Below are positions 17,680 through 24,223 of a stretch of DNA of 64,000 nt, piece by piece. Position 1 is the first letter of the stretch, and each line of letters begins with the position of its first letter. The position numbers were made by a program, and so were the translations under genes. This stretch comes from Planctomycetota bacterium (GTDB lineage: Bacteria > Planctomycetota > Planctomycetia > Gemmatales > Gemmataceae). Below the pieces are notes generated by a model that ran no database searches, had not been told where the DNA came from, and saw only the letters and a program-made list of their open reading frames with translations. The stretch covers positions 19,912-83,911 of the forward strand of contig JACPPF010000046.1 in the NCBI GenBank assembly GCA_016191165.1. The letters are read 5' to 3'.

Positions 17680-17756
17680 GCACGGACCCTTTCCGATTGC
17701 GACGAACCCTTGGTGTGCGCGGCGAAGTTGTCAGTCTATCAAACGGAGGATGACCA

Positions 17757-20156
17757 ATGAACGCGACCATGTTGTTGGTGTGCCTCGCTGGCAGCGCGGT
17801 GACTGGTCAGGCGAACAAGCTGGTGTTCCAGGCGCCGCTGATCGACGTCTGGAGTCGGACGGAGGAGGGCCTGGAGTATCGCTACCTGATGCACAATCGG
17901 ACCTATCTGGGAAATAACTTTCTGAAGCCCGCGGCCAAGAAGGACTGGGGCAACCCCCGTGTTGATTTGAGCCGAATGCCCACGACCTATTGGCATGACA
18001 AGAGTCCGGTTGGCATGGTGTTGCAGAAGTTCAACTGGTTCCCTGGGCCGGAAAACACCTATCACGCGGATGCGCGTATGCCAGCCGCCATGATCGGCAT
18101 CGGGGGCAATCCGTGGGGCCAACTTGTCAATCTATGGTCGGAGCCGCCCTTTGCCGTTCTAGGCCTGGAAGTCGGCGCCATGGCGAGTTATGCGCGACCA
18201 GGGCAAACCATCCATTTCACCGAACGGGTACCGACGTTTGTCAAGTTGTCCCTGCCGGGCCAAGGAAAAACGCCGGTCTTTACCTATGTGCGGGATGCCC
18301 TTGATCGTGGCGCCAATCTGACGGTTTACCCCGGCGAGCCGCGGGCCATGATCGAGAAACATGGCGGGGAGAAGTTTTATCATGCGATCATCATTGAAAC
18401 GTACAAGTTTCCTGACTCGGTCGTGCATGACGAGCTGATGACCAAGGAAGCAATCACGATGCTCCTGGGCAAGCTGACCGAGGACGGTGTCCTTTGTTTT
18501 CATACGTCCAATCGGTTCTACGACCTCGTTGCCATCCTCGCCAGCGCCGCGGCGGAACTCCACCTGGGCTGCGTCGTCGGCAAGGACGCCCCCCCACGCG
18601 GCCAGCGAAGTACCCGCTTCGCGTCTGAATGGGTGATGATCGCCCGCAAACCGGCGTACCTGGCGCATTTGAAAGCGCCGGCAGGCGCCAAGGAGTTTCG
18701 GCCCTATTGGCAGACCCCCGATTTCGTTGACGACCGGCTGGTCTGGAACGACAAGGGAGAGAGATCGCTTCGAGGCGTCTATCGTTCCGATCCGGAGATC
18801 GACAAACTGCACAACAATATCTACGAACTCGAAGACTTCCTGCGCGCCAGGACGGGAATCCAACTCAACCCCTCTGGCGACCTGACTCGCTTTCTCCACG
18901 GTGTGATCGGCATCTTGAGCGATCGGTCGGCGCGCAGGAAAAACCGCGGGTTCGAAAAGGTCATCAACCGCGGCGACCGCAAGGTCGCCTTCGAAGCTCC
19001 GGGAATCCAGGTTATCACCACGAAGGACGAGGGGGCGGTCTATTCCTATCTGCTCTACGACGGCATCTATATCGGCCGAAGTTATCACCGACCCAGGGAT
19101 CCGGCGGCCCGCGGCGATCCAATACGGGACCGCAGCCGATTTCCCACGACGTATTTCCACGACAAGAGCCCTCTCGGCGTGCTTTTGCAAAAGTACAACT
19201 GGTTCCCCGGCGCAGAGAACACCTTTCATGCCGATGCGCGTTTGCCGGCCAGTCTCACGGGCATGGGGCTCGATCCACTCGGGCAGCTTACCCACCTCTG
19301 GTCGGAGCCGCCCATCGCAGTCGTCGGCATGGACGTGGGAACCGTTGCCAGCTACGCGCGCCCGGCCCAGGCGATTCATTTCTTCGAGCGTGTGCCGTTG
19401 TTCGTCAAGCTTTCTTCACCTGCAAAGGGCAAGCGTCCGCTTTTTCACTACCTCGAAGACGCACGGGCACGCGGCGCAGCGGTCTCGATTTTTCAGGGAG
19501 AGCCACGGCCAACGCTCAAGAAGCATGGCGGGGAAGGATTCTATCAACTGATCGTCGTCAACACCTACAAGGATGGCATTCGCACCGTCCACAAGGATCT
19601 GATGACCACGGAGGGCTTGCGCCTGCTGATGAGCCGAACACGGGCCGGAGGCGTCCTTTGTTTTCACACGTCAAATCGGTATTACGACCTGACGCCCATT
19701 CTCGCCAGCACGGCGAAAGAAGCCGGCTATTCCGTCGTCGTCGGCACGGATACGGCGACGTGGCCAGACGATCGGGATCGAGATCGCTTCACCTCCTGGT
19801 GGGTCATGGTGGCGCGCAAGCCAGCGGACCTGGCAGGCCTCAAGGCGCCGCCGGGATATGAAAAAGCACAACCCTGGAGCGATGCTCCTTTCTGGGTACC
19901 GCCGACCGGGATGGACGAGAAATTCATCTGGCGCGACAACGCGGAGAATTCCTTCCGCGGCGTCTATCGCTCCGATCCAACGATCGATTTATTCGGCAAC
20001 TCCGTTTCCAAGTTGACGAACTGGATTTCGGACAGCACCGGCATCCCGCAATACTCGATGTATCGGATGATGCAGCCGGTGCAGGAGGGCATCCGGGCCT
20101 GGAGTTCGCGTTCCGCACGGGAACTCAATCGTGAGCCGACCGCGCCCAAGAATTAG
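17757..20156 (+). CDS. Exported spermidine-synthase-fold protein, internally duplicated
   Basis: A 799-residue protein with GGAGGATG upstream of the start. Residues 1-20 (MNATMLLVCLAGSAVTGQA) look like a short signal peptide. The rest is two tandem copies of one domain of about 390 residues. Copy 1 has TTYWHDKSPVGMVLQKFNWF, NLWSEPPFAVLGLEVGAMAS and IHFTERVP; copy 2 has TTYFHDKSPLGVLLQKYNWF, HLWSEPPIAVVGMDVGTVAS and IHFFERVP. The glycine-rich turn after the LWSEPP segment and the following acidic residue match the nucleotide-binding strand of the spermidine/spermine-synthase (methyltransferase) fold, as in the soluble domain of fused MFS/spermidine synthases. No membrane domain is fused here. 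The reaction is unknown; polyamine synthesis is not established by this sequence. Confidence 0.75.
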   Translation: MNATMLLVCLAGSAVTGQANKLVFQAPLIDVWSRTEEGLEYRYLMHNRTYLGNNFLKPAAKKDWGNPRVDLSRMPTTYWHDKSPVGMVLQKFNWFPGPENTYHADARMPAAMIGIGGNPWGQLVNLWSEPPFAVLGLEVGAMASYARPGQTIHFTERVPTFVKLSLPGQGKTPVFTYVRDALDRGANLTVYPGEPRAMIEKHGGEKFYHAIIIETYKFPDSVVHDELMTKEAITMLLGKLTEDGVLCFHTSNRFYDLVAILASAAAELHLGCVVGKDAPPRGQRSTRFASEWVMIARKPAYLAHLKAPAGAKEFRPYWQTPDFVDDRLVWNDKGERSLRGVYRSDPEIDKLHNNIYELEDFLRARTGIQLNPSGDLTRFLHGVIGILSDRSARRKNRGFEKVINRGDRKVAFEAPGIQVITTKDEGAVYSYLLYDGIYIGRSYHRPRDPAARGDPIRDRSRFPTTYFHDKSPLGVLLQKYNWFPGAENTFHADARLPASLTGMGLDPLGQLTHLWSEPPIAVVGMDVGTVASYARPAQAIHFFERVPLFVKLSSPAKGKRPLFHYLEDARARGAAVSIFQGEPRPTLKKHGGEGFYQLIVVNTYKDGIRTVHKDLMTTEGLRLLMSRTRAGGVLCFHTSNRYYDLTPILASTAKEAGYSVVVGTDTATWPDDRDRDRFTSWWVMVARKPADLAGLKAPPGYEKAQPWSDAPFWVPPTGMDEKFIWRDNAENSFRGVYRSDPTIDLFGNSVSKLTNWISDSTGIPQYSMYRMMQPVQEGIRAWSSRSARELNREPTAPKN

Positions 20157-22012: not shown

Positions 22013-24223
22013 TCAATCGACGTAGGGGTCGGCGCCGAGGTCCTTCATGATCTCTTGCCGTTGGCGTTCGTAGTGCATGAGATCGAGGCGCTGGCGGTAG
22101 TGGCGTTTTTCGATGTAGTGTTGAGCGTTCATGAATTCGGGCGCGTATCCATCCCAGTTGCGGTCGCCGCCGGCCTGGCCGAGGAGCCTGAGCTTGTCCT
22201 GGCGGCCCTGGCCGAGCCCTTCGAGGATTTCATCCTCCAGGGAAAGGAAAAACTGGCAGCTCCCGGGATCGCCTTGGCGGGCGGCGCGGCCCATGAGCTG
22301 GCGGTCAATGCGGGCAGCCTCGTGGCGTTCGGTGCCGATCACGTGCAGTCCGCCGGCTTCCACCACGGCCCCGTGGTTCGATCGGGTGTTTTCGTCGGCC
22401 TCGATCTGGTCGATCCTCTGCTTGAGCAATTCCGGCGGCACCTCGTGGCGGAACTTGTATTGCGTCTTGAGCTGAGCCCAGGCGATCGCCTCGGCATTAC
22501 CGCCCAGAAGGATGTCGGTGCCCCGGCCCGCCATGTTGGTGGCGATGGTGACGGCGCCGGCGCGGCCCGCTTGCGCCACGATCTCGGCCTCACGCTCCGC
22601 ATTGCCCGGCTTCGCGTTGAGTACGTAATGAACGATCCCCAGCTCGATCAGCTTTCGGCTCAGCTTCTCCGATTTGTCCACCGAGCGCGTGCCAATCAGC
22701 ACGGGTCGGCCCCGGGCCTTCAGCCGCCGCACTTCCTCGACGATGGCGTCGAATTTCTGATCCTCGGTCGGGAAGATGCGATCCGGCAACACCTCGCGGA
22801 TGCACGGCTTGTTCGTGGGAACCTGCACGACCCACAGGCCATAGACGCGGCGCATTTCCCAGTAGTTCTGGATGGCCGTGCCGGTCATGCCGGATAACTT
22901 CGTATAGAGCTTGAAATACGACTGGTAGGTGATTTGGGCCGCGTGGTCGGTCTTGTAGGTGATGGTCGCGCCTTCCTTGGCCTCGACGGCCTGGTGCAAG
23001 CCCTCATTCCACTGCCGGTCGGGCATGGGCCGGCCGGTGCTTTCGTCGATGATGACGACTTTGTCGTCCTGGATCATGTAGTGTTGATCGAGCCGGAAGC
23101 GATGGTTGGCGTGGATGGCGCGTTCCACGTGTTCATGCAGCTTGTCCATCGCGTGAGAGTGCTCGCCGGCGGGCGGGTTGGAGTAGCGGATGAGGTGGCG
23201 GCCCTCGTCCGACAACTCGACCTTCTGCTTCTTTTCATCGAGATAGAAATGGACGTCGCGCTGCATCTCCTTCGCCAGCTTGTCGGACCATTTGTAGACG
23301 AGCGATTCCTGCTCGGTTGCCGGTCGGCTGCCCGTGCTGATGACCAGCGGGGTGCGGGCGTCGTCGATGAAGATGTTGTCGGCCTCATCGACGAGGACGT
23401 ACGCGTGGCCGCGCTGGACCTTGGGATCGAGGGGTTGAAAGGCTTGATTGGTGCTGATCCAGGCGGACCAGAACGGCAGGTTTTGGTTTCCGCCGCTTTT
23501 GGTCTTGAGTCGATCGCGGAGGAAGTCGAACCCGAACTCGCTGGAGGTGCCATAGGTGATGTCGCAGCGATAGGCGGTCTTGCGATCGTCGTCGCTCATG
23601 CGTTGTTGCAGGCAACCAACGGTCAAGCCGAGTGCGGTATAGATGCGGGAGGTCCAGTCGGCGTCGCGCTGAGCCAGGTAATCGTTGACGGTCGTGACGT
23701 GGACACCCTTGCCGGGCAAGGCATTGAGAACCACCGGTAGCGTGGCCACCAGGGTTTTGCCTTCGCCTGTGGAGACCTCCGCCAGGGCGGCATTGTGCAC
23801 GACGATGCCGGCGGCCAGTTGCACGTCGAAGGGACGTAGACCAAGCGTGCGTTTGGATGCGACGCAGACCAGGCCGAAGGTTTCCGCAAGCAAGTGGTCC
23901 AGCGATTCGCCGCCGCGCGCGCGGCCGCGCAATTGCAGGCCCTTTTGCTTTACCTCGGCATCGGATAGACGGTCGAACTCGACTTCCCAGTGGCGAATGT
24001 GCGCGATCTGCAAGGCAGCGTAGGCGAGCCGGCGTTTAGACGGGGTGCCAAACAACGCTTTGACGTGGTTCCACCAGCGTGGGCCGAAGCGCGCAAAGTT
24101 CCGCGCCGCCCCTGGCGGTGCCGCGGTTTCCGGAGTGCTGGGAGCGGAATTCGACGTCAACATGGGATCATCCACATTCGCGCGTGAGCAAAACCCAAGG
24201 CCAGTGCGCCCGGGTTTTCCCAC
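22013..24223 (-). CDS. SecA-like translocase ATPase lacking the C-terminal scaffold and wing domains
   Basis: A 736-residue protein. A GTG at 24223 has GAAAGG upstream; an ATG at 24163 is an alternative. SecA motor motifs are present: Walker A STGEGKTLVATLP, VTTVNDYLAQRDADW, YGTSSEFGFDFLRD, the DEAD box in VLVDEADNIFIDDARTPLVIS, a preprotein-cross-linking region, GTAIQNYWEMRRVYG, GRPVLIGTRSVDKSE, TNMAGRGTDI and GRAARQGDPGS. After SLEDEILE only about 68 residues remain, ending near the helix that in E. coli SecA reads EYDDV. The helical wing, most of the scaffold with the two-helix finger, and the zinc-binding tail are therefore missing. It is probably a SecA paralogue; the housekeeping SecA should be elsewhere. 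Function unproven. Confidence 0.85.
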   Translation of the reverse strand: MGKPGRTGLGFCSRANVDDPMLTSNSAPSTPETAAPPGAARNFARFGPRWWNHVKALFGTPSKRRLAYAALQIAHIRHWEVEFDRLSDAEVKQKGLQLRGRARGGESLDHLLAETFGLVCVASKRTLGLRPFDVQLAAGIVVHNAALAEVSTGEGKTLVATLPVVLNALPGKGVHVTTVNDYLAQRDADWTSRIYTALGLTVGCLQQRMSDDDRKTAYRCDITYGTSSEFGFDFLRDRLKTKSGGNQNLPFWSAWISTNQAFQPLDPKVQRGHAYVLVDEADNIFIDDARTPLVISTGSRPATEQESLVYKWSDKLAKEMQRDVHFYLDEKKQKVELSDEGRHLIRYSNPPAGEHSHAMDKLHEHVERAIHANHRFRLDQHYMIQDDKVVIIDESTGRPMPDRQWNEGLHQAVEAKEGATITYKTDHAAQITYQSYFKLYTKLSGMTGTAIQNYWEMRRVYGLWVVQVPTNKPCIREVLPDRIFPTEDQKFDAIVEEVRRLKARGRPVLIGTRSVDKSEKLSRKLIELGIVHYVLNAKPGNAEREAEIVAQAGRAGAVTIATNMAGRGTDILLGGNAEAIAWAQLKTQYKFRHEVPPELLKQRIDQIEADENTRSNHGAVVEAGGLHVIGTERHEAARIDRQLMGRAARQGDPGSCQFFLSLEDEILEGLGQGRQDKLRLLGQAGGDRNWDGYAPEFMNAQHYIEKRHYRQRLDLMHYERQRQEIMKDLGADPYVD

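What the first reader, a model, noticed from the sequence alone, without database searches (positions are those of the whole stretch)
17757..20156. Internal tandem duplication of an exported spermidine-synthase-fold domain
Seen: two halves of about 390 residues share long colinear motifs (HDKSPxGxxLQKxNWFPG, LWSEPP, IHFxERVP, FRGVYRSDP or LRGVYRSDP). A short signal-like N-terminus precedes them. Known: this fold usually appears as a cytoplasmic enzyme or fused to membrane transporters. Inference: a two-domain, possibly extracytoplasmic derivative with a new role.
Basis: partly seen in the sequence, partly recalled or inferred. Interest (0 to 1): 0.6.

Follow-up and report, generated by a model that had tools for sequence, protein, structure and literature searches.

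The report
Duplicated, probably exported dead spermidine-synthase fold
A freshwater planctomycete gene encodes two head-to-tail copies of a spermidine-synthase-shaped domain that sits behind a probable export signal and has lost its catalytic residues, one of several stand-alone, apparently inactive offshoots of a large family of membrane proteins whose function is unknown.

Summary
One 799-codon frame (17757-20156, +) encodes two halves that are 50% identical over 387 residues (E 5e-134). No start codon lies at the second copy, and each half is modelled as a spermidine-synthase fold. Syntenic orthologues beside truD in two sister MAGs have a single copy (one internally deleted). Three other congeners have the truD locus without the gene, and among about 400 genomes of the class the two-copy form was seen only here.

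Relatives show what it is. The domain descends from the polytopic "fused MFS/spermidine synthase" family (NCBIfam NF037959). All 55 polytopic members checked keep the active-site loop (DAFSSDAIPxH). Every complete stand-alone relative (11 proteins, at least two origins) has lost it, and all begin with a signal peptide, a signal-like stretch or a membrane anchor. No bacterial AdoMet decarboxylase was found in the genus, so ordinary spermidine synthesis is unlikely.

Best reading: an exported, catalytically dead, covalently paired SpdSyn-fold binding protein. Export is likely, but this protein's own signal is atypical (no K/R). Binding is inferred, not shown. Positive-inside analysis suggests that the polytopic relatives also place this domain outside the cell membrane.

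Novelty: new variant of a known kind.

The parts
17745..17749 (+). Shine-Dalgarno GGAGG, 7 nt before the ATG
   Evidence: sequence; equivalents in the orthologues G001 (GGGAGG) and G002 (GAGGAG)
17757..20156 (+). Whole gene, 799 aa: signal-like N-terminus plus two SpdSyn-fold domains
17757..17813 (+). Signal-like N-terminus MNATMLLVCLAGSAVTGQA, putative cleavage GQA|N; no K/R
   Evidence: conserved in two orthologues; pLDDT 45-59 in the model, the fold starting at residue 21
17814..18950 (+). Domain 1 (residues 20-398)
   Evidence: AF2 model and Foldseek; 50% identical to domain 2
18024..18149 (+). Family-specific insert in domain 1 (QKFNWFPG...LWSEPP, residues 90-131), shared with part of the polytopic relatives, low model confidence
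   Evidence: alignment; pLDDT
18387..18443 (+). Degenerate active-site loop of domain 1, IIIETYKFPDSVVHDELMT (polytopic consensus VVDAFSSDAIPVHLLT)
   Evidence: column table; family count
18951..18977 (+). Junction FEKVINRGD between the domains; no in-frame start codon from codon 388 to 474
18978..20153 (+). Domain 2 (residues 408-799)
19551..19607 (+). Degenerate active-site loop of domain 2, IVVNTYKDGIRTVHKDLMT

Best explanation
The gene encodes an exported pseudoenzyme. Two copies of an aminopropyltransferase-like (spermidine-synthase) fold, derived from the SpdSyn domain of the polytopic MFS_SpdSyn family, lost the membrane domain, gained or kept an export signal and lost the catalytic acids; an internal duplication then joined two of them. 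Mechanism: the N-terminal hydrophobic segment sends the protein through Sec (likely); in the periplasm or on the membrane surface the two domains pack as a covalent counterpart of the usual SpdSyn homodimer (inferred) and use the residual pocket (Y78, H80, G140, E156, R196, H249, S251 kept) to bind a small ligand or a partner, plausibly the polytopic paralogues whose own SpdSyn domain is predicted on the same side, without catalysing aminopropyl transfer (inferred). Shown: duplication, ancestry, loss of motifs, single-copy syntenic orthologues. Inferred: export of this protein, lack of catalysis, binding role.
For: Duplication. Fold. Ancestry: NF037959 (MFS_SpdSyn) matches 33 of 41 aligned relatives, exactly the polytopic ones, and none of the 8 stand-alone rows; the stand-alone rows are nested among polytopic rows in the tree. 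Catalysis lost: the loop D[AV]F.SDxxPxH and a G[LM]GxG motif occur in 55/55 polytopic ORFs and the loop in 0/9 complete stand-alone ORFs, with two further stand-alone proteins also lacking the loop; the column table shows GDAR replaced by GEPR and the catalytic Asp by E or N; the HMM alignment to solved SpdSyn puts that column on the catalytic Asp. Constraint remains: about 40 columns are invariant or nearly so in 11 stand-alone rows, and differences between copies are concentrated at codon position 3. Export: short hydrophobic N-terminus conserved in orthologues; relatives G002b, G081 and G113 have classical Sec signals and G000b, G003, G032 and G069 have N-terminal anchors. No PF02675 AdoMet decarboxylase in 7 of 7 congeners, controls positive.
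Against: No K/R in the N-region of this protein. The stand-alone forms of the window's group are one clade (8 rows), so they are not 8 independent losses; the second origin rests on a few long branches. The motif loss could reflect changed chemistry rather than none. The syntenic orthologue of G002 has lost about 110 residues, which could mean decay. Nothing shows binding or partnership.
Confidence: 0.5

Rival explanations
1. An exported enzyme with altered chemistry: the SpdSyn fold still binds a nucleoside or amine and catalyses another reaction with E214/N602 in place of the Asp.
For: Pocket residues Y78, H80, E156, R196, H249 and S251 are invariant in the stand-alone forms; domain 1 has E where the catalytic D sat.
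Against: The loop length and sequence differ between all stand-alone forms (ETYKFPDSVV, NTYKDGIRTV, EACSGEDGEK, ETARGHSDRP, DTSHGHPALP, FVELFETGFN), which is not what a new active site would look like; SAM and dcSAM are cytoplasmic cofactors.
Confidence: 0.2
2. A cytoplasmic two-domain protein; the N-terminal hydrophobic stretch is not a signal.
For: No positive charge in the first 20 residues; h-region score 2.16 (12-residue Kyte-Doolittle), the lowest of the 11 stand-alone relatives.
Against: Same N-terminus in two orthologues with diverged bodies; GQA-type end before the fold; unstructured in the model; close stand-alone relatives have clear signals or anchors.
Confidence: 0.15
3. A decaying gene without function: the lineage lost the enzyme and the remnants drift, duplicating and shrinking.
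For: Long branches; the G002 orthologue lacks the catalytic half; the gene is absent at this locus in three congeners.
Against: Open 799-codon frame with coding-type GC3 in both halves, codon-position-3-biased divergence, intact SD and start in all three orthologues, invariant columns.
Confidence: 0.13
4. Assembly or sequencing artefact joining two genes.
For: The genome is a fragmented draft of 183 contigs.
Against: The copies differ at 41% of bases; frame continuous through the junction; no second start.
Confidence: 0.02

Closest known systems
Fused MFS/spermidine synthase, NCBIfam NF037959 (MFS_SpdSyn)
   Same: Same domain and, for part of the family in this planctomycete family, the same long insert (NWFPG...LWSEPP); 33/33 polytopic relatives match the model.
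   Different: No polytopic membrane domain; below the model's detection; DAFSSDAIPxH, GLGxG and GDAR motifs lost; two tandem copies.
Spermidine synthase SpeE (TIGR00417 / PF01564; solved structures 6o65, 1xj5, 4yux, 1uir)
   Same: Fold: N-terminal beta-strands plus Rossmann-like domain, Foldseek E 2e-8.
   Different: About 10-14% identity, catalytic Asp and SAM-site residues absent, tandem, probably exported; no SpeD in the genus.
Single-copy stand-alone relatives in G001 (VGZI01000144.1) and G002 (SYHD01000190.1)
   Same: Same locus beside truD, same N-terminus, same degenerate loop, same C-terminal YRSDPxID helix extension.
   Different: One domain only; the insert is lost, and the G002 copy has an internal deletion of about 110 residues.

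Membership tests
MFS_SpdSyn (NF037959) | Score above the curated cut-off (40 bits) | tested here: not met
   No hit for either half even at E 10. Polytopic L054 scores 59.7; L049, an insert-type polytopic relative, scores only 25.3.
MFS_SpdSyn (NF037959) | N-terminal polytopic membrane domain | tested here: not met
   Only an N-terminal hydrophobic stretch; no helix run in the hydropathy scan.
MFS_SpdSyn (NF037959) | SpdSyn domain with DAFSSDxxPxH loop | tested here: not met
   ETYKFPDSVVHDELMT and NTYKDGIRTVHKDLMT
MFS_SpdSyn (NF037959) | Common descent of the domain | tested here: met
   35-50% identity to polytopic domains; nested in the tree with supported branches
Spermidine synthase (SpeE, PF01564) | Aminopropyltransferase fold | tested here: met
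   AF2 and Foldseek
Spermidine synthase (SpeE, PF01564) | Catalytic Asp and SAM-site acidic residues | tested here: not met
   Asp replaced by E214 and N602; GD to GE; only E156 kept
Spermidine synthase (SpeE, PF01564) | Co-occurring AdoMet decarboxylase supplying dcAdoMet | tested here: not met
   PF02675 absent from 7/7 congeners with positive controls; PF01536 search uninformative because no control rang
Sec-exported protein | Signal peptide with n, h and c regions | tested here: inconclusive
   h-region and GQA end present, n-region charge absent; no SignalP available

The most novel reading that the evidence does not exclude
MFS_SpdSyn proteins of planctomycetes carry an extracytoplasmic SpdSyn-fold domain, and this domain has been released at least twice as exported, catalytically dead binding proteins, here fused head to tail into a covalent pseudo-dimer: a new class of periplasmic pseudoenzymes on a fold known only from cytoplasmic polyamine metabolism.
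Probability: 0.35. Interest if true: 0.68.

Novelty: new variant of a known kind. Interest (0 to 1): 0.48.

Why it matters
Fused MFS/spermidine synthases are abundant in planctomycetes, but no paper in the held library discussed them under the terms searched. A clean split between membrane-fused forms with an intact active site and stand-alone forms without one suggests that the domain has a binding role separable from catalysis, and the topology analysis raises the testable question of whether the whole family works outside the cytoplasm. The two-copy protein gives a soluble, single-chain object for testing both.

Tried and rejected
Species order of the duplication: the tree leaves d1, d2 and the two orthologues unresolved; informative sites are 4 for d1+d2, 9 for d1+G001, 7 for d1+G002, with the latter two kinds weakly segregated along the gene (p 0.034). 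That hints at an older duplication followed by recombination back to one copy, but it is too weak to claim. My first idea that catalysis was lost because the domain moved from cytoplasm to periplasm is not kept, because positive-inside analysis puts the polytopic domain outside too. Polyamine synthesis was rejected as the likely role. Literature searches gave nothing on this family. Neighbouring genes give no operon clue: truD diverges upstream and a DUF1501 gene follows in G000 but not in G001 or G002.

Full report
Observation. The 799-codon ORF at 17757-20156 (+) is real. Its halves align over 387 residues with 50% identity (E 5e-134). The start is fixed by GGAGG at 17745-17749 and by orthologues in two sister genomes that begin MNAAIMFVCL and MNAAMLMVCL with their own Shine-Dalgarno sequences. 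Between codons 388 and 474 there is no in-frame start, so the second copy cannot be a separate gene; the copies share only 59% of bases, so they are not an assembly repeat.

Identity of the domain. Sequence libraries do not recognise the protein. Its relatives do: an alignment of 41 domains contains 33 members that match NCBIfam NF037959, fused MFS/spermidine synthase, and the 8 that do not are exactly the rows without a polytopic membrane domain, including both copies here. An AF2 model of domain 1 is confident (pLDDT 84.9, pTM 0.85), and Foldseek returns only aminopropyltransferases in its first 38 PDB hits (best E 2e-8). The full-length model repeats the same order of strands and helices in the second half, with lower confidence (pTM 0.58).

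Orthologues. In congeners G001 and G002 (contigs matching VGZI01000144.1 and SYHD01000190.1 in name lookup by truD) the gene lies at the same place: N6/N4 DNA methylase (+), an unannotated 230-aa ORF (-), truD (-), then this gene (+). Both have one domain; G002 lacks about 110 residues including the active-site half. In G003, G005 and G006 the truD neighbourhood is present without the gene, and none of the other truD loci fetched has it. In 398 genomes of the class, close relatives (E <= 1e-28) occur only in 13 genomes of the same family, and the two-domain form only in this genome. The named congeners are freshwater planctomycete MAGs labelled Gemmataceae or similar. Whether duplication came before or after the species split is open.

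Active site. In the SpdSyn of known structure the segment aligned to VVDAFSSDAIPVH carries the catalytic Asp (alignment; role of that Asp from general knowledge of SpdSyn). A scan of all fetched ORFs shows that loop, and a G[LM]GxG motif, in 55 of 55 polytopic proteins; the loop is absent from 9 of 9 complete stand-alone proteins (one of these is the internally deleted G002 orthologue, which lacks the region altogether). Two more stand-alone proteins in other genera, L115 and L116, also lack it. The loops of the stand-alone forms differ from one another in length and sequence. About 40 other columns stay invariant or nearly so in the 11 stand-alone rows, including Y78, H80, G140, E156, G193, R196, H249 and S251. 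So the fold and part of the pocket are under constraint, and the chemistry is not. The tree places the stand-alone forms in two places among polytopic ones (L115 and L116 were found later and are not in that tree), so detachment and motif loss coincided at least twice; within the main clade the rows are not independent.

Location. The window protein starts MNATMLLVCLAGSAVTGQA|NK: a short hydrophobic core and a plausible cleavage site, but no K/R. Relatives are clearer: G002b, G081 and G113 carry classical Sec signals; G000b, G003, G032 and G069 carry basic N-termini followed by one membrane helix. Averaged over 25 full-length polytopic relatives, the hydropathy profile gives about 15 helices, with loops after even-numbered helices carrying net positive charge and loops after odd ones not; a short basic loop (RPLR type) precedes the last helix. 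This predicts an inside N-terminus and an outside SpdSyn domain (helix counting by simple hydropathy, so inference only). If right, the exported place of the stand-alone domain is inherited.

Function. No PF02675 AdoMet decarboxylase is found in any of seven congeners while controls are positive, so dcAdoMet-dependent spermidine synthesis is unlikely; PF01564 matches in these genomes are mostly in long frames. The most likely mechanism is an exported, non-catalytic binding or scaffold protein in which two SpdSyn folds are joined in one chain, perhaps a covalent version of the SpdSyn dimer. That it binds a ligand or the polytopic paralogues is inference.

Membership. It is not a member of MFS_SpdSyn or SpeE by their defining features (no membrane domain, no catalytic loop, below the model cut-off), but it descends from the former. 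I call it a new variant of a known kind.

Noticed in passing
L040 8517-9320 (G002): Syntenic orthologue of 267 aa with an open frame but lacking the region matching residues about 227-336 of domain 1; a naturally shortened SpdSyn-fold protein that keeps the signal-like start and the C-terminal helix.
   Followed up: partly
L044 5413-16729 (own genome, contig C15): Three polytopic MFS_SpdSyn paralogues in near-tandem, flanked by an M17 aminopeptidase, an acyl-CoA carboxyltransferase and sigma-54 genes.
   Followed up: partly
L093, L115, L116: A second group of stand-alone SpdSyn-fold proteins with signal peptides or anchors and degenerate loops in other genera of the family, with a different insert before the YYH motif.
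   Followed up: partly
polytopic relatives, e.g. L054 5640-7862: Positive-inside pattern predicts about 15 helices and an extracytoplasmic SpdSyn domain for the MFS_SpdSyn family.
   Followed up: partly
window 22013-24223 (-): A 736-aa SecA homologue (SecA_DEAD, preprotein cross-linking and P-loop domains) close to the gene; whether it is the main or an additional SecA was not checked.
   Followed up: no
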